Part shown: piece by piece, positions 3,296-61,905 of the stretch
Layout: each line of letters opens with the position of its first letter
Position numbering within the stretch: the first letter of the stretch is position 1
From: Sclerodactyla briareus
Taxonomy: Eukaryota; Echinodermata; Holothuroidea; Dendrochirotida; Sclerodactylidae
Assembly: GCA_026419785.1 (NCBI GenBank)
Contig: JAODTK010000821.1
Coordinates: forward strand, 248,001-312,000
Direction of reading: 5' to 3'
DNA: 64,000 nt
Position numbers and translations under genes: made by a program
Notes under the pieces: model-generated
What the model was told of the DNA's origin: nothing
The model's database searches: none
What the model saw: only the letters and a program-made list of their open reading frames with translations

Positions 3296-5098
3296 CTGCA
3301 GGAGAATGAGAGAAACGTTACAAGCCTGAGCAAACTCAACAAGTCTCTGATATGATCTGAGCTGAGGAAATTCATTGTGACAGTTGAGTGCCTTTCAGGG
3401 TGGCAACTCACAGGAAATTTCTCATAACCTATTTCACATGAATCAGCGGTCCTTTTGCCACTATGTCATTTAAATCGGGAAATCATAAAAACGGACCTAA
3501 ATCTTTTTAAAAGTCTTCTTTTCATGGCACTATTGGAAATGGTTTATAAATTTTGTGCCAGAAATCATGCAAATAAACTTGTTTGCAGTTACGGAATCTA
3601 GATCGTGCAAATTGTTCATTTGGGCAATGTCCATAGAAGTAGGTTTTATCATAGGATTGTAAGCCCTAGTTGAATTGAACGTTAAAAAGATCGTGATGCC
3701 TATGTCTGAACAAACTGACTGCGGCAAATAATTGGAAATTTACCATGTAAACTATATGAAGCACTCTGAAAACATGATCAAGCCAGCGAAAAAAAAAAAA
3801 AAAAAAAGGTTTAAACATACCGTACAAAGGAAATTTTAACTACAGTGGATCACTCATTGAAAATATGCCTAACATTAACGATCGAGGAGATGCCTACATT
3901 CCTCGGCGGATAAGCTATTCATCACTACTGGAATTTCTTCTGACTAATTAGCATCACAAATACATATCCAGAAAGTAAAATGGTATATGGTTGTGCCTCC
4001 ATGTGAAGTAACAAGGTAAAGTTTCTCACAGTACACTATTGAGCCATCAAAATCATACTGTGGGGATCTAACTTTAGTTTGCAGCACAAGAAGTCAGTGT
4101 TGGAGGACAATGATGCATGCCCAAGCTATCTTCAAATTGGCTTATAAGCCCGCTTGGAGTTACAGTAATGATATGATAATGATATTGTGTTGAAGGTCCC
4201 AAAAAATAGGGGAATGACTGCATTGTTCGTTGAACGTACAGTGTGCAGAACGATCTTTTTGAATCTCCCCTGCTGAAATTACGAATCCGCAATCCAAACC
4301 TTTAACTATTCCCTTCCCCCCATAGTTATCATCAATAACATCCAAAAACATGGATTGAATTGGTTTGGTTACATCAACAGTGGTGACAGTTTAAAAATAA
4401 GCTGTAAATACTATTGCTAGGGGCGAATTGTCCGAATCTCGTCGTACCCCCCGAACCTTTCTGTGGTGAGCATGCCGACTTAGAACTACGAATTTTCATG
4501 AATCGTATCCTTCTAGAACCACTTCCCTCCATACACACTCTCCCAACTTCCCTCAAGGTGTGTAAACATCCTCCAAACTTTTTTCATGGTGTGGAAGCAC
4601 TACTGTGAAGTGAAAAAGCGTGCATGTCTGCTAACCTTGATAATATGTTATGTAGGGATACACTATTACTGTCAGCCTTGATATCCAGAATGATCAGCTT
4701 GATTCCTTCAGTAACAATGAATGTTAACATTGTTAAATGGCCTATGGTAGGTATGTGACAAGGATGACCCATCGGCCTTACTTAGCCTAAAATAGTGTGT
4801 GTATACCGCAATATCAATAGGAATACGGATGCACTCAGACTGTGATTCGACTCAAAATTCTGCTTTTTCAAAAGATACCATGGGCACTTCAAAAGAGTAA
4901 TCCTGATCAGCATACACATAAACAAACCCCCCCCCCCCTAAAAAAAAGAGAAAAAGAGAACAACCAAAACCAAACGAAAAGAACCTCAAAAGGATTAGAC
5001 CCACATGTATATTATTGAGAATGCAGATACTGTATTAACCCCCAGTCTTTCCGAAGAAAGATGTTGCATCCTCAGCTGAGCAAGATAGTTAACCCCAC
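3296..5098. other. Intron region; diverged dispersed repeat at 4074-4600
   Basis: Mostly AT-rich intron with a 19-base A run at 3789. The part from about 4074 to 4560 is a diverged copy of the sequence at 37490-37865 (shared stretches include ACAGTGGTGACAG-like and ATTGCTAGGGG segments in the same order). A short frame on the minus strand at 4640-4715 (GIKLIILDIKADSNSV) ends at a good donor AAG|GTTAGC and could be another exon, but its phase does not fit its neighbours and it was not called. Confidence 0.35.
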
Positions 5099-5243
5099 CC
5101 TCATCTCCTCAATTCTATTAATGAAGGAATCCAGGACATTCAGCTGAGTGTCTCCCAGATTTCTGTAAATGGATGGAAGAAGTATTATTTTGATCCCCTG
5201 ATTGTTATTCTTGTAATACCCAAGGAACCCAGTCTGGGATGTC
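5099..5243 (-). CDS. Exon D (candidate) of unidentified minus-strand gene
   Basis: Acceptor ACTGGATTCAG precedes 5243 and a weak donor GAGG|GTGGGG follows 5099. The exon is open in one frame for 48 codons after one carried-over base, with TSQTGFLGYYKNNNQGIK, then IILLPSIYRNLGDTQLN, then VLDSFINRIEEMR. The amphipathic, low-bias composition resembles an alpha-helical structural protein. The ending phase (0) does not match the start of exon C (which needs one leftover base), so an exon is missing between them or an indel disturbs the phase. Membership in the same gene as exons A-C is inferred from strand and proximity only. Confidence 0.5.
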
Positions 5244-5524
5244 CTGAATCCAGTTAAGATGGGTAAAGCAAGCATAATAAATTATTATTATTCTATCGGC
5301 TTCATCAGTGCATTTCAAACAACAATAGATCTCTTGGGTTTTCACTGTGACTGGTTGGATGGAACCGATATAACATTGGCCACAGTTTGCATTGCTTTAA
5401 GCATTTGTGAGGCTGAGCTCATAGCCACCCTGCCTCATCTGCATACACGACAACCAGTAAATTGTATTGCCTATGTTGCATAGTGGGCAACTATAGCAGA
5501 GAATATCACAAATGTTGCATGCAC

Positions 5525-5598
5525 TTTCCTCCTGACACATAGTTGTTGGTGAGATATGAAACTGCATGTCCTGCAACTGGAACTCATACCACAGCCAT
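5525..5598 (-). CDS. Exon E (candidate), minus-strand gene
   Basis: An excellent acceptor (AATACTGGTTTTTCAG) precedes 5598. One frame reads WLWYEFQLQDMQFHIS then PTTMCQEE before a possible donor GAAA|GTGCAT; another frame is also open (GCGMSSSCRTCSF). I prefer the first for its composition, but the choice, and therefore the donor, is uncertain. Product unknown. Confidence 0.35.
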
Positions 5599-5908
5599 CT
5601 GAAAAACCAGTATTTTTCAAAGATTAAATTTAAACTTTTTCCAGCCTGGTTCCATCTTGCATGAACAGACTCCAGCCACTGACTCTCTTCAATTCATTTC
5701 AGGCAAAAGTTCATGAATATCCTATTCAGGGAATGATTACAATTTGTTACAATATGTGTTTGGCGCCATGAGTTGCGAAAACTTTCATAACATGTTGGCA
5801 ATTGTACACTAAATTTTCATTCTCACAATTGGCCTTAGTACCATTCTCATCGAATCATCCATAGCTTGTCCTGTCCGGAATCAGGCTGGCTTTGGATTTA
5901 TTACATAC
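5599..5908. repeat. Fragment of a dispersed MITE-like repeat
   Basis: About 5755-5830 matches the reverse complement of the palindromic element at 62358-62497: TTTGGCGCC..ATGAG and GTACACTAAATTTTCAT..TCTCACA occur in the same order. The palindromic ends are not intact here, so this is a diverged or partial copy lying between candidate exons E and F. Confidence 0.5.
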
Positions 5909-8299: not shown

Positions 8300-11200
8300 C
8301 TCCCTAACTGTATGTTCACACATATATTGAATCCACCGATGCTAAGAGGTCTGGCATTAACTAAGCACAATGGTGCTGAACGTGAAATCGCTCATATTGA
8401 AAAGTATTTCATTGCAGATGGTCAAAATGCAATGTCATTGCGGGCATTATGAGTGGTAGCAACTCTTGTTTCGCCGCCGGATGTACCACGCTGCCTATTG
8501 GGTGCCTTTAGTGATGTTCTATGCCGTTAGGCCCTCTTTGCCTGTAACATTTTTGCATCATTCCAATCTTCCGGGTCGTTTCCGTTCTTCTGAGGACCCT
8601 GGAAGGTCCTGTGTTTACCCCGGTTTCGCCTTGGATTACCATGCGGTTTTCTTTTTTCTTGGCATGAGGAATACAGGTGGAGTCGGTGCGCCGCAGGCCT
8701 GCCATCACCCCCCAGATAGTGCCTAGGCCCGACCCCGTGGTAGCGCCTGGGGAGGCTGCCTTTTCATATGGCGTAAAATCCCGAGCACCCTCCTCTGCTA
8801 GTTTGCGACTAGGTGTCACCCAGGTCGGTGTTTCAGGGTGCCCACTCGAGTCCGTGCTCTCCGAATTAGTTTTTGTTGGTGTCTTGTCGCTGCCGTGGGT
8901 TTTCCACTCGCCTACTTTGTCCTCCTTCTTTACTACCTTATCAGGTTATTTCAGTTTCTCATACGACACCTACTGCACCCCCTCACGTGACATCTGTTCT
9001 CTTTTTTCTTTCTCTTTCGCTAATATACGTGGTCTCCACCGCATCTCACCGTCCCACCACTCCTTATGGCTCAGCATTCTCATCTACTTTTTTAACCGAA
9101 ACACAGATTAAATCACCTCTTGAGTTAACACATCTCCAGTGTCCAACTATATTCTTCATTTGTTTTCAGTTCAAGCGGGAGTGTGCGCCTTTGTCACTCC
9201 AGCATCCTGTTACCCTCTTATCTGAATTTGATCTCTGTTGTGATGACTTTCCTTCTCTGCTCAAGTCTCTCTTCCTCGCCGGACTAAAGGTGTTCGATTG
9301 TGTTTACCGTTCGCCCAACTGTATCATCACGATGCTCTATTCTCGCATTCACCTCTGCTGTTGATTACTAATTCAACGCTATTAACGACTGTGAACTTGC
9401 TCGACTTGCTGATTTCAATGTGCTAATGCAGAATGGCTCATACACTCTGCGTGTGTCGAAGCTGAGTCTTTTTGCTATTACCAATGGTCCACCCAGCTCA
9501 TCAATTCTCCTACCCGTATCCCTGATCGGGCCTCGATCGTGCTAACTTGTTGGATCTTTTTTTTCTCACTACTCAGCCGCTTATTTACAGTCCAGCCACT
9601 GTCTCTGGCCCTATTGGCTCCTCTGACCCTTGCCTCATTACCCTGTCTCATCAATCCACTCCTTATCAAGCTCCCCACCAAAGGCAGAAACTTGGAACTA
9701 CTCCAAAGCTTACTGGTTTGGTCTTCGGGTTTTTTTTTCATCTTCCTGGGATGAAACTACCTTCTCAATGACCCCCTACTCTGCTTCTGCTATTTCGGAA
9801 AATATTCTTTTAGGAATGAACGCTTTTTTCCCTACACTTCAAGATCAGGCTCCTCTTCACAACCTTCATGGTTCAACCATCAATGTATTACTGCCGTCCA
9901 GGAGAAGAACTGACTTTATCGCGCCTTGGCTATCTTCTCCTTCACTGATTCCCGTCAAGCCATATGTTAACTGCTCCTTAATGTGTGCCTGAGACTCTCG
10001 ATGAGCAAAAATTCTTTCAATTTCACGATGGCTAATAAACTTTCATCCTGCCCTTCTGGTAGTCGTTCATCTTTGGTCGCTGGCCAATCTGTGTCCCAGA
10101 ACTTCTGTACTTCCAATCCTCCGCTGGTCAAACGCTGATGGCTCTTTTGGCTAGTGATTCCACCTCTAAAGCTGATACTTTTTGCCGAGCTATTCTCTTC
10201 TCATTCACTATGAACACAGATGCTCATCCTCCTCCGTCTTTTGCCAGCTTTCGTGAAACATTTGGATTGTTGTTTTCACTACTCGTATGGTCCGCCAAAC
10301 ACTCAATAGATTAGACATTAATAAAGCATTTGGTCCTGATGGCACTCCCCTTCGTCCTCCTGCAGTGTGCCCCCGAACTGCGCCTATCTTAGCAAGCTTT
10401 ACCGCCTTTGTTACTCTATGGGATGCTACCCTTCATGTGTGGAACATGCTCAGGTCTGCCCAGTCCCTAAAAGGGTGACAATCCACCCCTCCAATTACAG
10501 GCCAATCGCCATCACCTCGGTCTCTCCAAAGTATGGAAACTATAAACAGCATGGTTTTGGAACTTTCCTTGAGTTTCACTCTCTCATCCGGGACCACCAG
10601 TATGGTTTTCCGGCATGGCCGATCTACGGGCCCTACTATCTTTTGTCACAATCAGTGGGCCCAAGCCATTGAGTTTTCGGTGAAAGTAGGTCTATTGCCC
10701 TTGATATCTCTCAGGCCTTCGACCGTGTTGGCACGCCGTACTCCTTGCCAATTAACTTCATTTGGTTTCATCCCCCTTCTAACCTCTTGGACTGCCGTTT
10801 TCTCACCGCGCTCTATTCTTTGTTAGGGTTGATGGTGCCCTCTCCGAGACCTTCCCTATCAATACTGGTGTTCCTGAAGGTTGTGTTTTCTCTCCTACAC
10901 TCTTTCTCCTTTTTTATCAATGATCTCTTAGCTCACCTCCTATAGTATTCACCTTTTGCTGATGATTCTACCCTTCACCACTCCTGTGCTTTCCTCGGCC
11001 CGGAAGCTAACGTTTCGTCTCTTCAACCGTTCCCTAGTTGCCATCAGCTGAACAATGATCTGCAGTCTATTTTGAACTGGGGCACTGCTAATCTGGTTAC
11101 CTTCAACAATCTAAAACTCAGAACTTTCTGAGTTCTGGTCGTCCGTGTTTCTGATGCACGTCTCCTTTCATGGCTGACCAGATCCTCCTCAGTCTACTTC

Positions 11201-11885
11201 TCTTAAATATCCTTGGTATGGAAATCACCACAACCTTCCCTGGAACTCTGATATCAAGTCTATCGCTACAAATGCTTCTAGAAAGTTTGGGCTTCTTAAT
11301 CCGCACAAGTAATACTCACCCCAAACAGCTACTTCTGTCTTTACAAAGCCGCAAATTCGTCCTCTAATGGAATATGGTTTGCCATATTTGGGGTGGGGCT
11401 TCACAATCCTCTCAGTGTCCTTGATCTTTCCCGAGAAAGGCCATTCGTCTCATCACGATGATCTCTTACACTCCTCCTTCATCTCTATCCCATCGCAGAT
11501 CTGTATCCTCTCTCTGCCCTCCTTAACCGTTACTTTTATGGTCAATGTTCTTTCTTACTGGGGGATCTGTTCCTCCTTTACTCGAGGTTACCTGCCATAC
11601 TCTTCTTCGTCTTCCAGCCACCCGTTTCGGTGGCATCTTCCACGTCATCGCACAGACCTAGCTCGCTCCTTTTTTTCCCGCACTTCGTGGCTTGTAATAG
11701 GCTTCCTCGAAATGTATTTCCTCCTGTTTTTGACCTTCAGCGGTTCAAGATTAGACATCAACAAGCCTGGATTCTCTCCTCCTTTCTTTTAGTTTCCTTG
11801 TGCTGGGGTTGCCTTTTTGTTTAGGCAATTATGGGTTCGCCCTTCCTCAAGTCACGTTATTTAAAAAAAAACAAAAAAAAAACAT
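8300..11885 (+). mobile_element. Decayed non-LTR retrotransposon (Jockey/CR1-type LINE)
   Basis: A nearly full LINE in which the coding sequence jumps frames every 50-200 bp. In order: an AP-endonuclease-like part (ANIRGLH about 9016, LTETQI about 9092, DFNV about 9413, SGPIGSSD about 9605), then reverse transcriptase blocks (LDINKAFGPDGTP at 10311, HPSNYRPIAITSV at 10486, QYGFRHGRSTG-like at 10598, ALDIS-AFDRVW at 10697, GVP-GCVFSPTLF at 10869, catalytic FADDSTLH at 10953), and a C-terminal region to about 11790. It ends in TTATTT followed by an A-rich tail with one C (11861-11882). The 5' third (8460-8990) probably held ORF1 or the 5' UTR. No target duplication was confirmed. The element cannot make an intact protein as sequenced; some frame breaks may be assembly errors. 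Confidence 0.85.
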
Positions 11886-12684
11886 GTATTTCGAACCAGT
11901 GGTTAAACTATAGTACTGATTAGTAATCAGTAACAGTTTCCTTAACCCATGAAACTCAAGGTAACAGTTAAGAACTGCACAGCAATGTAAGTTGGCACAA
12001 GAGTGCCAATGGATTAAGCACAAAAAATGCACTCACTAAGCTGCTTACCAGCCTATTAAACATGGAACCTACTAACACCTGCTTGGTATTCAGTACATTG
12101 AAGGCACAGGAAACATCCTGACCTTTGGTAGCCTTCATACGGGGAGTAGAAAAACCTATTGTTTTAGATTGAGATCAGCTCATGTTTTTAGTACACATTG
12201 GAAATAGTATTACTTGGGGCCAGAAATCACCTGACTGTGAATGGTAGGCTATGAAGTGGTACGCGGTGTACGTATGAGGTTTGGGAAGAAGAGAAAACAA
12301 TAACAATGCTAACAGTAGGTTAATGGTCTGATGAACTCCACAGAATATAACCTCAAGGGCATGTTCTACTAACCACACTCGGTACACCCCTGAATAAACA
12401 ACTCTGCCATACACGAGAGCACCAATGGGTGCTGTTTCTCAACCACAGAAATGGTGGGATTGAGGTACAAGCCTAAGTTGAAGCCTTTATGCAACCAGTT
12501 TCAGTATGTCATGGGCAACTATTCGGGAGTCTGTGTAATCGAGGCAGTCTAACAGAAGCAAAGATCCGCAGCCTATTGGTTACGGCATTGAACTTGAAAC
12601 CAGAATTATGGTATCCATTCCCTGTAATATTCTTCTGGCAAGGGCCCCATTGACTCTACTTGCTCTCGGCACTCAGTGCCAATT
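11886..12684. other. Intergenic DNA, no gene seen
   Basis: No spliced or long open frame. At 12418 the string AGCACCAATGGGTGCTG matches the start of the composite repeat found at 18417 and 60140, here apparently as a short remnant. Confidence 0.35.
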
Positions 12685-13723
12685 GGGGACCTGTTCAGGT
12701 AATGGATTGGGGGTGACAGTCCGATGTTCATAAGGGTTTTTATTCATAAGGTCCTTTTGTCATAAGGCCCTTTTTATTCATAAGGCCCTTTTGTTTCATA
12801 AGGCCCGTTATTCATAATGGCAGAAAAGTTTCTTTATTCCATAAGGTCCATTTTTCATATCACGACATAAGGTCGGGGGGGGGGCGCTATTCATAATAGT
12901 AAAAACGGTCCTTTATTCATAACAGGAAGGGTCCGTTATTTCATAAAATAGGAAAAAAAGTTCCGTTATTCATAATAGGAAAAGGCGTTATCATAATGAG
13001 AAAGGTCCGATATTCATTGGGAAAAAAAGGTCCGTAATTAATAATAGAAAAAAGGTCCGATCTATAGGAAAAAAGGTCCGTTATTCATATAGTGAAAAGG
13101 TCCGATATTCATAATAGGAAAAAGGTTCCCTTATTCATAATAGGAAAACAAACACCGGTCGTGGATCTTCCAGGGGTCGCAGCTGACAAAAGGGCAGTTT
13201 TAGGGTTTTGGCATCCTTGCCGGCCTCGCATAGGTAGAATTATCTGTTCGGCAAGTATATACTTTGACAGAACACATTATGAATAACGGACGCTTTTTCC
13301 TATTATGAAATAACGACCTCTTTTGCTATTATGAATAACAGACCCTTTTCACTATTATGAATAACGGGCCTTTTCTGCGATTATGAATAACGGACCTCTT
13401 TTGCTATTCTGAATACGTCCCCTTCGCTTCTATGAATTCGGACCCTTTTCGCATTAATGAAATAGGACCTTTTTTACTATTATATAGCGGACTTCTGTGC
13501 TCTTTATGAATAACAGACCCCTTGTGATAATTATGAAAAAATGGGCCTTTGTTGGTCAGTATGAATATCGGACTTAGACAAAGACCCTTTTTTAGTAGGA
13601 ATATCGGACCTTTTTGGCATATGAATAACGGACCCTTTTTCCGAAAATTTGCACGTTATGATAACAGGCTATGAACAGGGGCTCTATGAAAAAAGCCTTA
13701 TGAACACCTTCGGGCAGGTCCCC
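12685..13723. mobile_element. TU-like foldback element with inverted tandem-repeat arms
   Basis: The left arm (about 12725-13145) is an array of roughly 20-25-bp units of the type TTATTCATAATAGGAAAAAGG + TCCG; the right arm (about 13275-13700) is the same unit in reverse complement (CGGACC..TTTTTCCTATTATGAATAA). The outer ends match in inverted orientation: GGGGACCTG at 12685 and CAGGTCCCC at 13715-13723, followed on both sides by GTTCATAAGG-type sequence. The arms flank a ~130-bp non-repetitive centre (13146-13275). This is the architecture of Drosophila FB and sea-urchin TU foldback transposons. No transposase frame is present. A target duplication was not found. Confidence 0.75.
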
Positions 13724-14080
13724 GGATGGGGACACATGGTGGGCTGTCAAAGTGGGTAGCTGTCATTGACGAATGTGGCACTTGAAGTACAGCATGTCTT
13801 TATCCAGGTTACCACTTGATCGGCGAGTAATGTAATGTGCACTAAAATCGCATTAAGCTACTGTACTACGAGATGGTGAATCAGTTAGAAGACAAAAGTT
13901 AATGAGACTCATCGGCCCACTCACCCATCTTTGATTAGGGTCGGAACATATGTTGATGGTCATGCGTCTTGTGTACTACCAGCATTTCCCCTCAGATCAG
14001 CACCATCAGTGCCTCCATCTTGCGGCCTACCGCGTCATCCTCGTCTTGTGTCCTGGACTCCACCATTGTCCTTGAGATAG
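13724..14080. other. Intergenic DNA, nothing recognised
   Basis: No repeat or spliced ORF seen. Confidence 0.3.
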
Positions 14081-18416: not shown

Positions 18417-20900
18417 AGAGCACCAATGGTGCTGTAGCTCAAACCGCCTGAATGTACCAAGAACAAATGTAAAAATTTGTGACTAAATGTTCAACATCAT
18501 CAGGCCCAAAAAAGGAAATTACAAAATGGCCTATTGTGCTCCGGTCGACTTCGACTTTGATCTTCATAGGGCCGAAGATGTCTTAGCAGTCATTGAACTT
18601 GTTACTCAGTTAGGTCAAATCCATCAAAGAATGGTCAATTGAGAGGAAAAAAGGCAATTTCACACAGTGGCCTATTATTGTGCCTTTTTGACCTTGACCT
18701 TCATAAGGTCAAGATGTCCCAGTTCAGTGTGGAACATTTGTGTATGATTTCAATTTTCAGAATGATCGAAATGACCACTAGTTGAAACACCCTACATGTT
18801 TTCAATGGTCTAATGGTAATACTGAACAAAAATGATCATCCAATTTATACTAAGGAGAATAGGCCGCTGGGTCAGGATAAAAAAATAGTAGGAATGACTG
18901 GCAATGTAGTCTGTCTCTGTAAGATGTTTGCAAAGGGCCATCACAAAAATTGGCGAAATGATTAATAGAATAATAGTGGCAACCTGCGAATCATGTTGTC
19001 CCATTCTTGGAAGAAATGGAATGGAGGTGCACCTTACATGGAATGAAATAAGAAATAATTATGTATATGACTCAGCTTTAACTTGGATGGAGAGCAGGGA
19101 TGTGTTCAAATATTGAATGGTACAGATAACCACCATAGGCTGCCAGGTAGTTTCCAATCCCATGGCCCAGCCTACTGCCAGATAGTGTAGGTCCATTGAC
19201 TACCAAGACTACAGACCTAATGAACTCATCAAAACCAGTAACCTTTCAATAACCCCATTTCAATGCACTGTTGCATGAACCAAGCCTTTTATATGTACTC
19301 AATAATACAACTACCCTGGCTGACTAAGTGATGATAAATTTATGAACAGTCCAAGGTTGTCCCTCTCACCAACTTCCCTATTCCAAGAAAATTAGACAAT
19401 GGCGGCTATTCATTTATGTGTACACAGAGTGAACAGAAGCTCTTCTCTGCTTTAGAATGACCTACTAGACAATGGATTGACCAGAGAAGGGTGACAAACT
19501 TAAGCTAGAATAGAATACAAGTAGTTAGGCTGGGTTCGCAGGATTTAAGGAAATGGAATACAAGTCAATGAATCAATATTCAATACTGGGTAATGAAAAA
19601 AAGTGTGACATGCATGACAAATTCAAATAAGTTTATAAATATGGGTAGTTTGGGTACCAGTGACAGGCAACTGCAGGTTAAGTTTAATTCACCTGGCCAT
19701 CAAATGAAAACCAGCTTATCACATCTGGTCTATTTTGGTTGTAATAAATGCTGCATACAATGAAATTTCAATGTCAATTCATAATTTACGAAAATATGCA
19801 CTATTTTGGGGTGCAAATTATGACATTTTGAAATACCCTTTAATGACTTTCAACCTGAACCATCAGGTACCATCATTCTGTGATAACACTGATGGAGTTC
19901 ATTGTAATCCGACTAAATCTGTAGAGGGAGAAGAATTTTGCAGACTTTTGCAGTTTCCACATCATGATAGTTCATTAAGCACCTTTAACAACTTTTGACC
20001 AGAAAAGTCTGTAGTTATGGCTATTCCATCATTATGATCGAACATCAGCACTATGCACCAAAATTTGTTAGGATGAGAAGCTTTTTGCGTGATTGCACAG
20101 GATGAGCCCTCGGGCGCACACTGGACCTTGGGCCAGAAGTTTGCGAACACCACCGATGGACCACAACCCAAGGAGCATTGCAATTAAAAATCAATTGAAA
20201 GTTGTAGGAGGAGATGCATTTCAAGTACATTGTGTGTAATTTCATGATATGGACCCTCGGCCCGATGCATGACCCCTTCGGATGAAAAATTCCTGAAAAC
20301 CCAGAAGGTATGGCTGTTAGACCACCATTATGATAGTACTGATGAGCACCAAAATTCATAGAGAGGCATTTTGTGTAATTACACATGATGGGGTCCAGCG
20401 CCCACACTGGGCCTTGGGTCCTAAATACTTTTGGCACCCTGCAGGTACAACTATTGGACCATCATGATGACCAAACATCAGCACTGTTCAACAACATTTG
20501 TAGGAGATACAAGATTTTGCGGTATTTTCATTATGGGCCTAAAGGCCCCGGAATTCCCAAACAACCTATTAGCCCTCTACTCAAGAACCAGTACAGGTAA
20601 CTTTGAAGAAAATCAATTGAAGCTTGTGGGAGGAGATGCATTTCAAGTACCATTGTGTGAATTTCATGGAACGGGCCCTTGGACCCAAATGGGATCTTGG
20701 ACCAAAAATGCCTGAACACCTCTAAGATATAGCTGTTAGACCATCATTATGACCAAATGTCAGCACTGTGCACCAGAATTTGCAAGAGGAGAAGCATTTG
20801 CATTCAAATTCCACATAAAGGCTGACCCCAGGGCCCACTAAAGGACCGCTCAAAAAATCCTTGGCAAAAATCCTGAAAATTATGAGGAAGAATAATGCAA
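18417..20900. repeat. Composite dispersed repeat, copy 1
   Basis: Starts with GAGCACCAATGGTGCTG, a small hairpin, followed by TAGCTCAAACCGCC and TGTACCAAGAAC. About 18417-18740 aligns with 60140-60480, and 20000-20900 aligns with 60590-61870. The second part is a tandem array with ~150- and ~300-bp periodicity; each unit carries AGGAGATGCATTTCAAGTA, TGTGTGAAATTTCAT, GGGCCC-type and ATTATGACC.AA.ATCAGCACTGTGCAC segments. Roughly 1.2 kb (18750-19990) present here has no counterpart in copy 2. The many short ORFs in the array come from the repeat. Confidence 0.7.
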
Positions 20901-26395: not shown

Positions 26396-28250
26396 GCCCA
26401 TAGAGGCCCCCAGCATAGTAGTACATCAGTTATTATCACTCAGGGAACGCACCTCTGATCTGGGGCATATCAGCGTCGAGCAAAATAGGAACAAAGGCGA
26501 AAAGCCCCCCCCACCGTGAAAAACAGCAGCCACTATCTACCTACGCACATAAACATAATTAGCGTTACTCCAAACACGGCCTATTCCCACTAAGTTTGAC
26601 CATCTAGAAGACCACCAGAAAAGCACTACTTTCCCAAATCTCCAATCAATAAGCCATCACGACAAGGGATTTGTGATGATGAAAATTGCAAAGAGAGGGG
26701 AAATATGTAATTATATATGCGCAACTAATAGCACTGTACAATGAGTTGCGTGCCAAGTTGGATACTCGAGAACGCCGGACAGCAGACCGTCACACTCTCA
26801 ATGAAGCATGATCAAGATAAGGTTGCCTGGTGAACAAGGTGAACACAAAGGAAGCAGGCTCATAATATGCACATAAGTAATTAGTACCTTATGGTGACCT
26901 AGATGACTGGTGACCTCTCATGAATCAAATTCCCGTTCGAGACTAGAAGCTGCTGGCATCAAGTGTGAAGGGAAAGGGTACATCAGAGAAGCTTTCGCAG
27001 TTGTAGCCCCCCCCCCCAAAAATACCAGTAGGACTGCTGTTATTTACCCTGATTTCTCTACGAAAGTCCCCAATTCGCCCTGGATGCAAACAAAAGCAAA
27101 TATCAGCCCAAACGAAGCTACAGCTGAGTGGCTCCTTGATCTCTGACCCGTGCTTTCCTGAATGAACAGAATAGAAGAAAATGAGAAGACAGTGATTTCC
27201 TTTTTTCTCTGTATCTTGCAAAATTGTTCTATTTAAATGGCCTAGGAGATACTATTACAAACTGTTGTGAGTAATATTTACAAGAGAACTTTCCGAAAAA
27301 ATATTTACAAAGAAGATCAATAATAATATTGTACAAATTAGAATAATACAACCGAGTATTTACAGTAGCAAATATGCAGATGATGAGCCCCAAAACGGCT
27401 TCACTAGAGCTACTGGTGAAAGAGACACAGCTAATATATAACTTATTATATAAAATATAGTATGAAAATATGTCTAGTTATAAATCATAAATTTGCAATT
27501 TTTATAAAATTTAGTCGAACCATGAAATCACCTACTTGTCGTTTTGACAAGGCCATATGAGTGTTTCCTGCGTAACTACAAGCAACAACAGGAAGATGAA
27601 ATTGACAAACAAGCAGTGACCAGACCGCGTGCTTAGTTGTAGACACGATGTCTGACCTCAAGGAGCATATAAGGGTCATAAAAATTCCAATGTCGATTCC
27701 ATTGACACAGCGGTGCAGCATCTCTGCATGGAACCGCAATAGAGGTGGAGTGAATCAAGATGTGCTGCGGCATCCCCAGCAATATGAACAAGTCTCTCAC
27801 CCAATCTGTCCATGAAGGAGACATAGTGCCGAAGAAAGATTGACATGGCAACACTGGAGTGTGGAAGGTGAATCACTGCCCTGCAAGTAGAGCGCTCTGG
27901 GGTCAGCTTCTGAATGGAGATAGCTTGAGCACCACCCATGATGGCCCCGCAGGTCCTCGTCACCAGTCTCACTACCTGGAAAGTGGCGCTTGCCACCACG
28001 AAAAACAGACTCGCTGTGACTCACGGCGGACGGGCCAACCACGGTGGCTGGAGCGGGATCGAGCAGGAAGCTGGAGGGGCGGCTTGGAATGGGAGGACGG
28101 CCTCCGCAGGGGCTGTCTTCAGGCACCGGGGGGGTCACGGGTTCCGGCCGGTCTTCAGTTGCCTCAATAGTCCTGGCCTGAATGATACAAGAAAATATAT
28201 ACGAGTATAAAAATATTGTATCTTAGTTGAAATGGAGAAGACAATACGAG
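26396..28250 (-). repeat. Tandem duplication copy 1 (1.8 kb), with candidate exon
   Basis: This unit is repeated at 28251-30045 in the same orientation, with many single-base indels between copies. On the minus strand both copies keep a splice acceptor (CTTGTATCATT.CAG) directly before GCCAGG at about 28178 here. After it, coding-like reading in changing frames follows: IEATEDRPEPVTPPVPE, then ASATFQVVRLVTRTCG, AVIHLPHSSVAMSIFLRH and SFMDRLGERLVHIAGDA, ending near 27650. A second conserved acceptor (TTTGCATCCAG) lies at about 27082. The product is not recognised. Confidence 0.6.
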
Positions 28251-30045
28251 GGCACAGCCATAGGGAGCTACATCAGTTATTATCAATCAGTGGTGATATT
28301 GGGGCCATATCAGGTGAAAAATAGGCAAAAACAGGGAAAACGGGTGCAAAACCGGCTAATTATATAGCACATACATATTAGGTCCTCAAATGGCGATTCT
28401 CACTAGTTTGATCCTAGAAGACCAGAAAGCATACTTTCAACGATCCATCAATAACCATCAAAGACCAGGATGTGATGATTGAAAATTGCAAAGAGAGAGG
28501 GAATATGCTACTTATATATGAGCATACATATTAGCACCTGTACAATTGTTGCTGTGCCCAAAGTTATTCCTCGAGGGAAAGCCGGAAAAGCAGACGTCAA
28601 ACTCTCCAATGAAGACATGATCAACAGATAAGTTTGCCTGTGAAAAGAGGGAAACACAACAGGAGCCGGCCTCTTATAATATGCGCCTAAGTGATAGTAC
28701 CTTAGTGGTGACCTTAGATGATGTATCTATGGATCAAATCCGTGCGAAGACTAGAAGCTGCTGGCATCAAGTGGTGAAGGCAAGGGTACATCAGTAAGAA
28801 GCTGTCGACAGTTGTAGCAAAGATTACCATAGACGCTGTTATTAATACCATGATTTTCTACAAGTCCCCAATTAGACCTGGATGACACAAACAATATTCA
28901 GCCCAACCAAGCTTCCAGCGGAGTCTGCTCCTCTGATCTGACCCTTGCCTTTCCTGAATGAACAGATAGACGGGAGAAAAATGAGAAGACAGTGATTTCC
29001 TTTTTTCTCTCTGTATCTTGCAAAATTGTTCGATTTACATGACTAGAGAAATACTATTTACAAAATGTGATTAATATATTTACAGAAGAATTTTCGAAAT
29101 ATTTACAAAGAATATCAATAAATAATATTTACAAATTATAGATTAATACAACCTATCTTACAGTACAAGATTCAGATGATGAGCCCAAAACGGCTTTCAC
29201 TAGCAGCTAATGGTGAAAGAGAACACAGCTAATATAGAAATTATTATTGAAATATAAGTAAGGAAAATATGTTCATATGTTATAAATATAAATTTGCAAT
29301 ATAATTTAGTCGAACCAAATGAAATCCCTACTTGTTTGTCGGTTTTTTTGACAAGCATAAGTTTTCCTGGTGTAATCTACAAGCAACAACGAAGCTGAAT
29401 ATTGACAACAAGCCGTGACTCAGACAGCGTGTCTCGTTCCGTAGACACACTGTCTGACCCTCAATGGGCATTAAAGGGTCCATAATTCCATTGTCGATTC
29501 CATTGACACAGCGTGCAGATTCTATGCATGGCCTGGCATCGATGTGTCAGTAAATCAAGATGTGCTTGCGGCATCCCCAGCAATATGAACAGTCTCACCC
29601 AATTCTGTCCATGAAGGAACATAGTTCCGAGAAAGATTGACATGGCCAACACTGGAGTGTGGAAGGTGAATCACTGCCCCTGCAAGTAGCGCCTCTGGGG
29701 CAGCTTCTGAAGGAGATCTTGAAGCACCACCCATGATGGACCCGCAGGTCCCGTCATCAGTCCTCACACCCTGGAAAGTGGCGCTATGCACACGAACAGC
29801 TCGGCCGTGACCACGGCGTTACGGGCCAACCACTGTGGTGGAGGGACGCGCAGGAAGTAGTGGGCGGGGCGGTGCTTGGAATGTGCAGGACGGGCCTCCG
29901 CAGCGGGCTGTTCTTCAGGCACCGTGGGGATCACGGGTTCCGGCAGGTCTTCAGTTGCCTCAATCGTCCCTGGCCTGAAATGATACAAGAATATACAATG
30001 AGTAAAAAATATTTGTATTCTTATTTGAAATGGAGAAGACAAATA
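28251..30045 (-). repeat. Tandem duplication copy 2 (1.8 kb), with candidate exon
   Basis: Second copy of the unit at 26396-28250. The acceptor CTTGTATCATTTCAG is at about 29978, followed by PGTIEATEDLPEPVIPTVPE and, in shifted frames, AVIHLPHSSV and LGE.VHIAGDA. Differences from copy 1 are dominated by one-base gains and losses scattered through coding and non-coding parts alike, which fits sequencing error better than neutral decay. Whether two copies exist in the genome or the assembly duplicated one haplotype cannot be told here. Confidence 0.6.
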
Positions 30046-39369: not shown

Positions 39370-41080
39370 CAGGATCTATGCGTCATGACGTGTGGCATGT
39401 CTGACGCCTGGGTTGTGGACACAATAACTCACAACGCCACCTTGATGGATGAATCTCATGCTTGGTATGTGGGTGTCCCCAGCAGTAAATTATCGCTATT
39501 GTTTTTGGGGTTCCAGGTCAGAGGTTTACTGAGATCATCAAAATCTTTGGCCACAATAATTCCCCGAATGCTTGGTTCGATCAGCTGAAAATTTTTGCAC
39601 ACTGCTTCCATGTGGACAATTGTGGAGTACAAGAACCTATTGTTTTTTGGTGAAGAGCCTGGGTCCTTTTGGTGAAAAACTGGAGAAATTGTGAAAAAAC
39701 TGAATTTTGGCCTAAAGTTAGCTTGTTGGACACAATTATTCAACCCCACGTGGGCGTGATTCCCCCATGTGAGTAATATCCCTATTGTTTTTTGGATCCG
39801 GTCAAAAGGTCAGCAGAGGTTGAAGTCTGTCAAACTCTGTGACAACGGCCATCCAGAACGCTTGGGTCCGATCAAGACTGAAATTGGCATACTGCCTCTC
39901 ATGGTGAGTACAAGAAGCATTGTTTTTGTGTGAGCACGGGTTAATTTTTGTTCAAATTTGAGGCATTGTGAAAAAAAAAAAAACTTAGCTTGTGTGCAAT
40001 CTCTTCACCCACCTGGAAGGATCAAGCTCGTACTTTGGTTTGGTGTGTTCCCCATTGTGAGTACATATCCCTATTGTTTTGGGTCGGGTCAAAGGTAAGC
40101 ATATGTCAGTTTAGAAACCTTGTTTTTTTTTGGACACGATATGTCCAGAAGGCCTGGTTCGATCAAGCTTGAAATTTGGCATACTGCTTACCATACAAAG
40201 GTACAATACCCTATTGTTTTTTGGTGCGAAGTATGGGTCATTTTGGTTGTGGAAAATGGGGAAATTCAGAAATTGTGAACAACTGATATTTCGTCCAATT
40301 TGATCTTGTGGGGTACAATTAACTTGACCCCCCCGGATGGATCAATCCCATACTTCGTGGGTTCCCCCCTGGTGAGTACATATCCTATGGTTTTGGGTTG
40401 GGTCACAGTTCAGCAGATGTCAGTTTAGAAACCTTGTGGACAACGATTGTCCAAAGTCAATGGTTCGATCAAGCTGAAATTTGGCATACTGCTTCCTACA
40501 AAGGTACCAAACCTTTTTTGGTTTTGGTAGAGGGGTCATTTTTGGTGGCAATGTGGAAATTCGAAATTGTGAAAAACTCTATTTCTGCCATTTGAGCTGT
40601 GGGTACATAACTACCCCAAACCGGGTGGATCAAGCTCATACTTTTTTGGTGGGTTCCCCATGTGAGACATTCCCTATTGTTTTGGTCGGGTCAAAGGTCA
40701 GCAGATGTCAGTTTAGAAACCTTGTGGACACGTATGTCCAGAATGCATGGTTCGATCAAGCTGAAATTTGGCAGCCTGCTTCCATACAAAAGTACAAGAA
40801 CCCTATTGTTTTTGGTGTGAAGTAGCCCTGGGTCATTTTTGGTGGAAAATGGGGAAATTCAGAAATTGTGAAAAACTGATATTTCGGCCAATTTGAGCTT
40901 GTGGGTACATTAACTTGACCCCACCGGGATGGATCAAGCTCATACTTGGTATGTGGGTTCCCCATGATGAGTTCATGATCCCTATTGTTTTTGAGTCAGG
41001 TCGAGGTCGTCTGGGGTCAGCAGAGGTCACAGTTTGAAAACCTTGTGTACACAGAACTCTTGGTCCTATCATAATGGAGT
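39370..41080 (+). repeat. Satellite-like array, ~300-bp unit
   Basis: About six units, each carrying in order TGGTTCGATCAAGCTGAAAT, TTGGCATACTGCTTCC, CCTATTGTTTTTTGGTG, GGGTCATTTTTGGTGGAAAA, GAAATTGTGAAAAACTGATA, TGGATCAAGCTCATACTTGG, GTTCCCCATG.TGAGTACAT and GGTCAGCAGATGTCAGTTTA. Marks of unit starts fall near 39540, 39850, 40150, 40445, 40745 and 41045. Units differ mainly by small indels. Single diverged units occur at 43600-43800 and 51340-51740, and inverted ones at 6441-7014. The short ORFs inside are not genes. Confidence 0.85.
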
Positions 41081-49857: not shown

Positions 49858-50740
49858 ATGGATTACAGTTGGTCATGGGACCTAGCATCAGTTACAATCT
49901 CTGCTAGGAGGTGATTCATGTTATACAGGCTGGGTATGTGACTAGCATCAGTTACAGCGCCTATGCTAGAGGTGGTCATGTATTACAGGCTGTGTTCCTG
50001 TGACCTAGCATCAAGTTACAATCACTCTGCCGACGAAGGTGATCAGGTTATACCGAGGGTCATGTACCTAGATCAGCTACAGATCCTATGCTACGAGGTG
50101 CACATGGTAATACAGGGCTGGGTCATGAACCTAGCACAGTTACCTATCCTCTGCTAGGAAGAGATCAGTGTGATACGGCTGGGTCATGGGACCTAGCATC
50201 AGTCACACATATCCCCTGCTAGGAAGTGAGTGATATGGTATTTTATACAGGATGGGTCTGTGACCTCGCATCAGGTACCATCCTCTGCTAGGAGGTGATC
50301 ATTTTATACAGGCTGGGTCATGTGACCGAGCATCAGTTAAATATGAACAGTGATAAGGCTGGGTTCATGTAACATAGCATCAGTACCTATCCTCTGCGAG
50401 AGGTGACATGTTATACAGGCCTGGGTCATGTGACCTATCATCAGTTACACATATCCCCTGCTAGGAAGTGATCGTTTGTATACAGGATGTGTATGGACCT
50501 AGGCATAAGTTACAATCTCTGCTGAGAAGGTGACCATGTTTAAACAGCTGGGTCATGTGACTAGCATCCGTTACATATCCTCTGGCTATGATGGTGACCT
50601 GTAAAACGGCGGGTCATTGACCATCATCAGTTACCACATATCCACTGATAGGTGATCACTATGTAAAACAGGCTGGGTCCTGTGACCTAGCATCAGTGTA
50701 AATATTTTCTGCTAGGAGGTGATCATTTTCAGGCTGTGGG
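49858..50740. repeat. 64-bp minisatellite in ERI2 intron
   Basis: About 14 tandem copies of a unit reading TGGGTCATGTGACCTAGCAT, CAGTTAC, ATATCCTCTGCTAGGAGGTG and ATCATGTTATACAGGC. Copies differ largely by one-base gains and losses, so the unit length wobbles between about 58 and 68 bp. The CTGCTAGGAG core and GTCATGTGAC core are small inverted repeats. Confidence 0.9.
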
Positions 50741-50999: not shown

Positions 51000-51335
51000 A
51001 AGGTCAATAACTTGACTGTATCTGGAACGGGCTGGAAGCAAGTATTGTTGGTTATTGCTATGGATGAGAACTCCATCTCACACTCTACTCCTTGACGTTC
51101 ACCAACATGATTACAACAAATGGACAAATTCCCAAGAATCTGGGAACATACACCCTGTTGTGAAGTGATCAATACAATCATATACAACGACATGCAATTA
51201 CAAAGTCAAGCCGATTTGGGTATTGCTCAGTATGAGAACACATGAAACAGGCATGTTACTGACATGTTTTGAATTCCTTGACAAAGTCTGGGGGAATTTG
51301 CAGTCATGGACAGTGTGTGTGTATGTATGTGACGC
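51000..51335. other. ERI2 intron, nothing recognised
   Basis: No exon or repeat boundary seen. Confidence 0.3.
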
Positions 51336-51745
51336 CTGACTTGTAACTCGATCCCCACCTGGATGGATGAACTCATAATTGGTATGTGTGTTCCTCATGA
51401 TGAGTACATGAACCCTATTGTTTTGGGGTCAGGTTCAGAGGTCATCTGAGATCACCGGAGGTCGAAGTCTGAAAACCTAGTAACACGTTAAAACAAGTCC
51501 GGAATGGTTGGTTCTGATTAGCTTTATTATGGGAGTACAAGACCCTATGGTTTGTGGTTTGGTTTAGGTTGGGGTGTGTTTCCTATGATGAGTACATGAA
51601 CCAACCCTATTGTTTGGGGGTCAGGTCAGAGGTCAAAGTTGAGACCTTGTTAACATGATAGGTCAAGACTGGTTGGTCCAATTCAAAGGATTGAGTACAT
51701 GCCCTATTGTTTTTTGGTTTAGGTCGGGTTAATTTTTGGTAAACC
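51336..51745 (+). repeat. Diverged units of the ~300-bp repeat family
   Basis: Two partial units with GGATGGATGAACTCATAATT, TTCCTCATGATGAGTACATG, AACCCTATTGTTTTGGGGTC and AGGTCGAAGTCTGAAAAC, as in the 39370-41080 array. Confidence 0.7.
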
Positions 51746-60139: not shown

Positions 60140-61905
60140 AAGCACCAATGGTACAGCAGCTCGAACCGCACAAAATGTACCAAGACGAATGTAACAAATT
60201 ATGTCACAGATATGAGGCCAAGAAGGGAGCAAGGGCCTATTGTGCCCCTGTAACAACCTGTGACCAATGATCTTCATATGTCCAAACAGGTCTTATCAGT
60301 CAATGAACATTGTTACTCACTTCAGTTAACATCCATCGAAGAATGCCCAATGAGAAAGAGGCAATTGCACCACAATGGCTATGGACCTCTGACCTAGACC
60401 TTCACAAGTCACAAAAGTCAATGGATATTGGGTCCAAGTTTGTTTCAAACATTGGAAACAATGTGTGTTCAAGTTTTTCAACATCCATCAATGAATGACT
60501 GTTTTGCTTCTTTTCATCAGATGTTACTGTTCAATTCTAACAACACTATATGATGTTGCATTCAAAATCTGCAAACCCTAGGGCACAATGGGCTTCAGCA
60601 GAAGTTCGCAAACACCCCGATGGATCACAAACCGAGAAGCATTACATGTAACTTTGAAGAGAAGGAATCAATGGTACTTTTGGAAGGAGATGCATTTCAA
60701 GTACCATTGTGTGAAATTTCATAGATAGTGGGATCTTGGATTGAAAATTCCTGAACCCCCGCAATGGTACGATGTTAGACCATCATTATGACCGAATGTC
60801 AGTAACTGTGTACCACAAAACTTGTAAGAGGAGAAGCATTTTGCATAATTCACACATAGGGCCTTGGGTCCAAATCCCTGGGCACCCTGAAGGTTACAGC
60901 TATTAGACCATCAATGTGACCGAACATCAGCATGGTTTGCAACTCAGATGTGTAGGAGATACAATATGTAGAGGATATTATAATGGCCCAAACTGGGCCA
61001 AAATTCTTGAACAACCCCATGGCCCATCGGCCCAAGGACCATACATGTAAACTGTGAAGGAAATCAATTGAAGCTTGTGGAGGAGGAGAGAATTCAAGGT
61101 TGTGTGAAATATCATAAATGAGCCCTCGGATCCAAGTCAGACCTTGGAACAAAAAATCCTGAACACCCCGAAGGTTTGTCTATTAGACATCATTATGACT
61201 GAACATCAGCACTGTGCAACGCTCTAAATTTAGGAGATGACAAGATATTGCTGGTTATTTCAACATAAGGGGCCCTCGGCCCATATTGGGCCTCGGGCCA
61301 AAAATTCCTGAAACACCCCCAATGGCCCTCTACCCAGGACCATTACATGTAACTTTGAAGAAAACTAATTGAAGCTGTGGGAGGAGATGCATTTCAAGTA
61401 CGATTGTGTGAAATTTCATAAAATGGGCCCTCTGGCCCAAGTGGGACCTTGGATTAAAAAAAATCCTGAACACCCCGAAGGTTTGTCTATTAGACCATCA
61501 GAATGACCGAACATCAGCACGTGCAAACTAAATGGTAGGAGATATAAGATATTGCGGTATTTCACATAATGGGCCCTTCGGCCCAAACTTGGCCCCGGGC
61601 CCAAAATTCCTGAACCCCCCAATGGGCCCTCTACAAGGACATTACATGTAACTTTGAAGAGAATCAATTGGTACTTTTGGAAGGAGATGCATTTCAAGTA
61701 CGATTGTGTGAAATTTCATAAAATGGGCCCTCTGGCCCAAGTGGGACCTTGGATTAAAAAAAATCCTGAAAACTCCGAAGGTACGGCTCATAGACCATCA
61801 TTATGACTGAACATCAGCACTGTGCACCAAAATTGTAGGAGAAGTAGCGTTTTGCAGTTTTCCACTTATTGGCCCATGTGCCCTTCTAATGCCATTTGAC
61901 AGTGA
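60140..61905. repeat. Composite dispersed repeat, copy 2, in WASHC2 intron
   Basis: Starts AGCACCAATGGTACAGCAGC and GAACCGCACAAAATGTACCA like copy 1 at 18417. From 60590 it is a tandem array of about six units with AGGAGATGCATTTCAAGTAC, TTGTGTGAAATTTCATA, GGGCCC.CGGCCCAA and AATTCCTGAACACCCC. A 150-bp block at 61400-61490 recurs almost unchanged at 61700-61790 (shared GATTAAAAAAAATCCTGAA), showing a ~300-bp higher-order period. Lies in the intron between the two recognised WASHC2 exons. Confidence 0.75.

What the first reader, a model, noticed from the sequence alone, without database searches (positions are those of the whole stretch)
12685..13723. Foldback transposon with tandem-repeat arms like sea-urchin TU elements
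Two arrays of a 20-25-bp unit face each other around a unique 130-bp centre, and the outermost bases (GGGGACCTG/CAGGTCCCC) are matching inverted repeats. This modular structure is rare and known mainly from Drosophila FB and echinoderm TU elements. Transcribed or single-stranded, the element would form a hairpin of roughly 400 bp per arm. The repeated AATAGGAAAAAGGTCCG unit could hold binding sites.
Basis: partly seen in the sequence, partly recalled or inferred. Interest (0 to 1): 0.75.

Follow-up and report, generated by a model that had tools for sequence, protein, structure and literature searches.

The report
Foldback transposon family with tandem-repeat arms
This is one of many copies of a small jumping-DNA element whose two ends are long mirror-image stacks of a short repeat; it carries no gene of its own and was almost certainly moved by an enzyme made elsewhere, so it is a well-supported new example of a known but uncommon kind of transposon.

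Summary
Real, and a genuine transposon. The window holds a 1,012-bp element at 12712-13723: an array of 16-18-bp then ~25-bp units, a 127-bp centre, and the array inverted. The arms align far above chance (score 266; best of 300 random window pairs 46). In its 319-Mb genome the exact 17-bp unit occurs 41 times (reversed control 0) and the 17-bp end motif 78+78 times with at most one mismatch (control 0+0). TSDs are 8 bp: 9 of 24 copies match at 7-8 of 8 bases, against 4 of 552 swapped flanks. Of seven empty-site comparisons, one overlaps by exactly 8 bp and two by 7. A 5.3-kb form keeps the arms around a different, apparently non-coding 4.4-kb middle. No partner transposase was found: MULE 0 matches; one Merlin-type match, no such ends within the 2.3 kb seen; hAT and P searches unanswered. 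Kinship to sea-urchin TU is untested.

The parts
12704..12711 (+). left copy of the 8-bp target-site duplication, GGATTGGG
   Evidence: 7 of 8 match to 13724-13731; 8 bp is the length at which the excess over swapped flanks is largest in 24 copies (1.70 bases; 1.65 at 9)
12712..13723 (+). non-autonomous foldback transposon, 1,012 bp
   Evidence: end-to-end (1-1012) matches to seven other places among the 40 scored, best G000:C2643:49813-50839 at 84%; boundaries
12712..12735 (+). left terminal sequence GGTGACAGTCCGATGTTCATAAGG
   Evidence: family consensus GGTGACAGCCCGATGTTCATAAGG
12727..13148 (+). left tandem array: outer 16-18-bp units (TTCATAAGGCCCTTTTA type), inner ~25-bp units (TTCATAATAGGAAAAAGGTCCGTTA type)
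13149..13275 (+). unique centre (short-form middle segment)
   Evidence: matched at 70-88% identity in 23 of the 26 other fetched loci; first ~35 bp shared with the long form, the rest not
13276..13706 (-). right tandem array, same units inverted
13696..13723 (-). right terminal sequence (reverse complement GGGGACCTGCCCGAAGGTGTTCATAAGG)
   Evidence: family consensus GGGGACCGCCCGATGTTCATAAGG
13724..13731 (+). right copy of the 8-bp target-site duplication, GGATGGGG
12685..12693 (+).
   Evidence: other copies do not extend to it; no target-site duplication there
40650..41060 (-). element-free paralog of the repeat into which the L061 copy is inserted (empty site; not part of the window's own element)
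   Evidence: the two L061 flanks overlap on it by exactly 8 bp, ATACCAAG

Best explanation
It is a non-autonomous cut-and-paste DNA transposon of the foldback type, one copy of a dispersed family. SHOWN: the family has near-identical ends (consensus GGKGACMGCCCGATGTTCATAAGG), arms built of tandem 16-25-bp units in mirror orientation, alternative middles (about 127 bp, or 4.4 kb), and 8-bp target-site duplications; element-free paralogous sites exist. INFERRED: a transposase encoded elsewhere binds the ends, and probably several of the repeat units inside the arms, brings the two ends together, cuts the element out and inserts it at a staggered 8-bp target. The many units act as a cluster of secondary binding sites that gives the two ends specificity, while slippage and unequal exchange change unit number and turn the arms over. 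As one strand, or as RNA, the element would fold into an imperfect hairpin with arms of about 400 bp.
For: Exact unit AATAGGAAAAAGGTCCG 41 times in 26 contigs, reversed control 0. Of 27 loci examined, 24 show the forward array followed by the reverse array; 3 (L050, L064, L067) show only one array at that threshold. End motif 78+78 at up to 1 mismatch, control 0+0. Seven other full-length (1-1012) matches at 76-84% to the window copy among 40 scored candidates. Shared ends and consensus of 16 copies. TSD: at least 7 of 8 in 9 of 24 copies, against 4 of 552 swapped flanks; excess largest at 8. Empty sites: joined flanks of 3 of 29 insertions matched an uninterrupted paralog among the fetched loci; L061 overlaps by exactly 8 bp on window 40650-41060 and 7 on 51330-51480, L057 by 7 on L056. 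The long form transposes as a unit: L073 flanks GCTTCTGA/GCTTCGGA, read by eye. Tandem repeats as secondary transposase sites: shown for Galileo (passages of PMC3688188).
Against: No transposase was tied to these ends. 15 of 24 copies show fewer than 7 of 8 matching TSD bases (L055 had a wrong left boundary there because of an insertion). Of seven empty-site comparisons (chosen from 17 flagged matches), four did not give 7-8 bp: 5, 1, -1 and one misplacement. That the units bind transposase is untested. The copies are noisy (507 one-base indels against 823 substitutions in 16 copies), so ages and reading frames cannot be trusted.
Confidence: 0.9

Rival explanations
1. An inverted minisatellite or satellite block that arose locally by slippage and inversion, not a mobile element.
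For: The arms are simple tandem arrays; at C884:211493-213338 arm sequence is amplified in tandem, satellite-like (match coordinates only).
Against: Dispersed copies with the same ends, centre and order, TSDs and empty sites.
Confidence: 0.02
2. An assembly artefact: two opposite reads joined at the centre.
For: The assembly looks noisy in one-base indels.
Against: Arms are only about 73-77% alike in the longest BLAST pieces, flanks are not inverted (score 23 against a random maximum of 31), and the same structure with the same centre occurs at many other loci.
Confidence: 0.01
3. A Helitron-type non-autonomous element carrying tandem repeats.
For: Such elements spread short tandem arrays in the Pacific oyster (title and start of abstract of PMC7492417 in the listing).
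Against: Helitron-type elements have no long inverted arrays and make no TSD (recalled); here the arrays are inverted, the ends are inverted repeats, and TSDs are 8 bp.
Confidence: 0.02
4. Same foldback element, but the repeat arms matter mainly as a hairpin: transcribed inverted repeats feed small-RNA silencing or provoke hairpin-mediated rearrangement, and the units are not transposase sites.
For: Strong predicted folding; unit number differs between arms and copies.
Against: No transcription data were available. The sharp conservation of the unit core is also what binding sites would give. Neither is tested.
Confidence: 0.25

Closest known systems
Sea-urchin TU elements (Strongylocentrotus purpuratus)
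   Same: Named as a foldback element in passages of PMC4079207. Recalled, not checked: tandem repeats in the outer inverted arms, variable middle segments, 8-bp TSDs.
   Different: Recalled unit length ~15 bp against 16-25 bp here; no TU sequence was available to compare (one search found no paper holding its three terms); host unnamed. Kinship untested.
Drosophila FB (foldback) elements and Tetris of D. virilis
   Same: Tetris: long inverted arms with tandem repeats, middle of variable composition, no coding capacity; its arm repeats also make longer satellite-like arrays (passages of PMC4079207).
   Different: Tetris units are ~220 bp, TSDs 8-10 bp and there is a flanking domain of up to 866 bp; here units are 16-25 bp, TSD 8 bp, and the repeats run almost to the end.
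Galileo (P superfamily)
   Same: Long internally repetitive arms; repeats hold secondary transposase-binding sites (PMC3688188 passages); first copies known were arms only (PMC3573991 passages).
   Different: 7-bp TSDs; arms over 1 kb; tandem repeats of ~210 bp in subfamily F. Whether a P-type transposase exists here is unknown (search not answered).
Tm1 Mutator/Foldback elements of root-knot nematodes
   Same: Composite arms of short tandem units (13-15 bp) in variable number, asymmetric outermost bases, and several internal types from MITE-like to transposase-coding (PMC3169594 passages).
   Different: Mostly 9-bp TSDs and a Mutator-type transposase in Tm1; here 8 bp and no MULE domain found in the genome.

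Membership tests
Foldback (FB-like) DNA transposons as a structural class | long terminal inverted repeats built of tandem repeats around a middle segment | tested here: met
Foldback (FB-like) DNA transposons as a structural class | dispersed copies with common ends | tested here: met
Foldback (FB-like) DNA transposons as a structural class | target-site duplication of fixed length and element-free sites | tested here: met
   8 bp: (9 of 24 copies at 7-8 of 8; 3 of 7 empty-site comparisons at 7-8 bp)
Sea-urchin TU | sequence similarity to TU arms | not testable with these tools
   no TU sequence held; TU paper search empty, a wider search listed none on TU among the 10 titles shown of 23
Sea-urchin TU | 8-bp TSD (recalled) | tested here: met
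Sea-urchin TU | same arms with different middle segments (recalled) | tested here: met
   127-bp centre against 4.4-kb middle
Mutator-like elements (incl. Phantom, Rehavkus, Tm1) | 8-11-bp TSD, arms commonly hundreds of bp (PMC6446971 passages) | tested here: met
   8 bp, arms 411 and 462 bp in the consensus
Mutator-like elements (incl. Phantom, Rehavkus, Tm1) | MULE transposase in the same genome or between these ends | tested here: not met
   PF10551: 0 matches, 4 candidates scored, control rings in 3 of 14 genomes; frameshift noise and incompleteness limit this
Merlin / IS1595-like | transposase between these ends | tested here: inconclusive
hAT | hAT transposase between these ends | not tested
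   PF05699 search not answered
P / Galileo | P-type transposase between these ends | not tested
   PF21787 search not answered
P / Galileo | 7-bp TSD (Galileo) | tested here: not met
   excess over swapped flanks is largest at 8 (1.70 bases, against 1.51 at 7)

The most novel reading that the evidence does not exclude
A TU-like foldback lineage in which the repeat arms alone are the transposable module: the same arms and ends mobilise unrelated middles (127 bp and a non-coding 4.4 kb), are served by a transposase outside the MULE superfamily, and feed tandem arm expansion into satellites (C884). If the transposase proves to be of an undescribed or unexpected superfamily, this would explain the orphan foldback elements of invertebrates such as TU.
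Probability: 0.15. Interest if true: 0.6.

Novelty: new member of a known kind. Interest (0 to 1): 0.38.

Why it matters
Foldback transposons with short tandem-repeat arms are uncommon, and several are known from few copies. This family gives dozens of dispersed copies with defined ends, a measured 8-bp TSD, element-free sites, two alternative middles on the same arms and at least one locus where arm sequence appears expanded in tandem. That makes two questions testable in one genome: whether the repeat units are transposase-binding arrays, and how foldback arms turn into satellites.

Tried and rejected
Rejected: assembly join and local minisatellite (see rivals). The 5.3-kb form as autonomous element: L049 and L073 are collinear over 5.3 kb and further near-full-length middles exist, but no long reading frame is conserved between the two; the 4-copy consensus has no ORF above 121 aa, and 10 of its 17 ORFs of 60 aa or more gave no Pfam match below E 0.028. 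9 of the 16 L049 ORFs listed and one L071 ORF gave nothing below E 0.0088, all under the Pfam cut-offs. L072, L071, L058 and L055 as long forms: best read as 1-kb copies split by nested insertions. Strict mirror copying of the arms: the collinear alignment of the consensus arms beats shuffled units (4 of 2000 shuffles reach it), but not when only the long units are shuffled (602 of 2000); in the window copy itself no unit register stands out. Led nowhere: a 16-base unit pattern in viral and prokaryote collections (15 and 22 stretches with one match each; I read these as chance, untested); plasmid blastn; Rfam, tRNA; Pfam on 10 of the window's ORFs and on 10 of 55 ORFs of 130 aa or more (list); six unit strings in the paper library, 0 papers. 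The RT-fragment protein search did not tell the host.

Rows dropped: the TSD test used 24 of the 29 end sets (left out: L049, L060, L067, L069 and the second L056 copy, for missing or unclear ends). The consensus used 16 of the 29. One search scored 40 of 391 candidates; one search listed 100 of 156 matches; one search scored 40 of 3,014 candidates. One search examined 7 comparisons out of 17 flagged; L070's joined flank matched L053 in two pieces about 76 bp apart and was not counted as spanning.

Full report
WHAT IS THERE. Window 12712-13723 (1,012 bp) is a modular inverted repeat. Going inward from the left end: GGTGACAGTCCGATG, units of 16-18 bp of the type TTCATAAGGCCCTTTTA, units of about 25 bp of the type TTCATAATAGGAAAAAGGTCCGTTA, a 127-bp centre (13149-13275), then the same series inverted. 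The local alignment of the left arm with the reverse-complemented right arm scores 266; 300 random pairs from the window have mean 27 and maximum 46, and the same arms in direct orientation score 48. Folded alone, 12780-13700 is far below 20 shuffles as DNA (z -11.7) and as RNA (z -8.7). Nothing else in the window matches it at E 0.001.

IT IS A DISPERSED FAMILY. The exact unit AATAGGAAAAAGGTCCG occurs 41 times in 26 contigs; the pattern read backwards occurs 0 times. I fetched 26 loci around these. Of 27 loci including the window, 24 show a forward array followed by a reverse array; three (L050, L064, L067) show one array at that threshold. The window's centre matches 23 of the 26 other loci (none in L049, L054, L067). 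A search with the whole element gave 391 first-look candidates, of which 40 were scored; seven others match 1-1012 end to end, at 76-84%. The end motif GCCCGATGTTCATAAGG occurs 78 times forward and 78 times reverse with at most one mismatch, control 0 and 0. The unscored candidates are not confirmed copies, so I claim dozens and suspect hundreds.

TRUE ENDS. Copies in both orientations define the ends. The consensus of 16 of the 29 copies gives left GGTGACAGCCCGATGTTCATAAGG and right GGGGACCGCCCGATGTTCATAAGG, identical at 22 of 24 positions (counted by eye). Its left GGGGACCTG (12685) is in the flank, 27 bp outside.

TARGET-SITE DUPLICATION AND EMPTY SITES. With boundaries fixed by the ends (a slide of up to 4 bases allowed, in the control too), the best 8-bp flank match reaches 7 or 8 of 8 in 9 of 24 copies (three perfect: L048, L061, L063) and in 4 of 552 swapped-flank pairs; the excess over swapped flanks is largest at 8 bp among lengths 5-10, though 9 is close (1.70 against 1.65 bases). 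The window copy has GGATTGGG/GGATGGGG. Joined flanks of 29 insertions were compared with the fetched loci; three (L053, L057, L061) match an uninterrupted paralog. In seven comparisons, chosen from 17 flagged, the two flanks overlap on the empty site by 8, 7, 7, 5, 1 and -1 bp, and one comparison misplaced a flank. The clearest is L061, whose target repeat is present without the element in this very window (40650-41060, minus strand): ATACCAAG is there once, and on both sides of the element in L061.

TWO MIDDLES. L073 (C959, 5.3 kb between ends) and L049 (C1035) are collinear from arm to arm at 77%. Their flanks, printed and compared by eye, give TSDs of 7 of 8 (L073) and 6 of 8 (L049) bases. 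A search with 3.7 kb of the L073 middle finds ten matches covering 93% or more of it, L073 itself included; the other nine are 77-80% identical, and there are partial ones; some sub-parts are commoner repeats. Apart from L073 and L049, I did not see the ends of these copies; the list holds an end motif 0.7-0.9 kb beyond the middle at C2768, C2900, C394 and (a partial copy) C2193, as expected. Long and short forms share the arms and the first ~35 bp of the centre and then differ; the short centre is not found in the long middle. The long middle has no long frame conserved between two copies, and a 4-copy consensus has no ORF above 121 aa and no Pfam domain in the 10 of 17 ORFs tested, so the long form also looks non-autonomous. 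L072, L071, L058 and L055 are best read as short forms split by nested insertions.

HOW IT PROBABLY WORKS. Shown: fixed ends, 8-bp TSD, element-free sites, no coding capacity seen. This is the signature of cut-and-paste movement by a transposase supplied in trans (established knowledge of class II elements). Inferred: the tandem units are secondary binding sites. The precedent is Galileo, whose transposase THAP domain binds sites within the tandem repeats of its long arms (passages of PMC3688188). Also inferred: arms turn over by slippage and unequal exchange. Unit numbers differ between arms and copies, arm order in the consensus is better than shuffled, but not when only the long units are shuffled, and C884 carries tandemly repeated arm matches, as Tetris arm repeats form satellite-like arrays in D. 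virilis (PMC4079207 passages).

WHICH TRANSPOSASE. [quoted passage not shown] MULE TSDs are 8-11 bp (PMC6446971 passages). The MULE domain PF10551 has 0 matches in this genome (4 candidates scored; control genomes ring in 3 of 14). The Merlin-type domain PF12762 has one match, C2120:481981-482274; the 2.3 kb I could see around it lacks the ends and the unit. hAT and P searches did not complete. The superfamily stays open. Frameshift noise in this assembly (507 one-base indels against 823 substitutions, transitions/transversions 370/453 in 16 copies) makes negative domain searches weak.

COMPARISON. It works like, and by structure is, a foldback transposon. TU elements of sea urchin are the closest analogue in layout (recalled: short tandem units in the outer arms, 8-bp TSD, variable middles), but no TU sequence or paper could be consulted, so kinship is untested. 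Tm1, Tetris and Galileo share the layout but differ in unit length or TSD (passages).

VERDICT. A well-supported new member of a known kind.

Noticed in passing
window 8500-11890 (+): Frameshifted remains of what looks like a non-LTR retrotransposon ending in an A-rich tract; window 10340-10669 translates to a reverse-transcriptase fragment (8 relatives, 7 of them with Pfam PF00078). It ends about 0.8 kb left of the foldback element.
   Followed up: partly
window 26583-28244 and 28396-30042: A 1.7-kb direct duplication, 81% identical, with a ~150-bp gap.
   Followed up: no
window 49871-50728: 63-bp minisatellite, about 7 copies by TRF, with related sequence beyond it.
   Followed up: no
window 20000-20817 and 60599-61875: Two places sharing related sequence; the second holds a ~300-bp tandem repeat of about 3 copies.
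   Followed up: no
window 39413-41052 and 51344-51635: Internally repeated sequence that is also the target of the L061 insertion elsewhere in the genome.
   Followed up: partly
G000:C884:211493-213338: Foldback arm matches repeated in tandem (match starts 208 or 156 bp apart), as if a satellite were growing out of the element; the stretch itself was not fetched.
   Followed up: no
16 of the fetched copies (L047-L070 and the window): One-base indels are unusually frequent against substitutions (507 against 823), which suggests uncorrected sequencing error in this assembly.
   Followed up: partly
G000:C2120:481981-482274 (in L078): The only IS1595/Merlin-type transposase domain found in the genome, one stop inside; no foldback ends within the 2.3 kb seen.
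   Followed up: partly
L056, two copies at 1776-2718 and 4946-5657: Two foldback copies about 2.2 kb apart; sequence beside them is an element-free paralog of the L057 target.
   Followed up: partly
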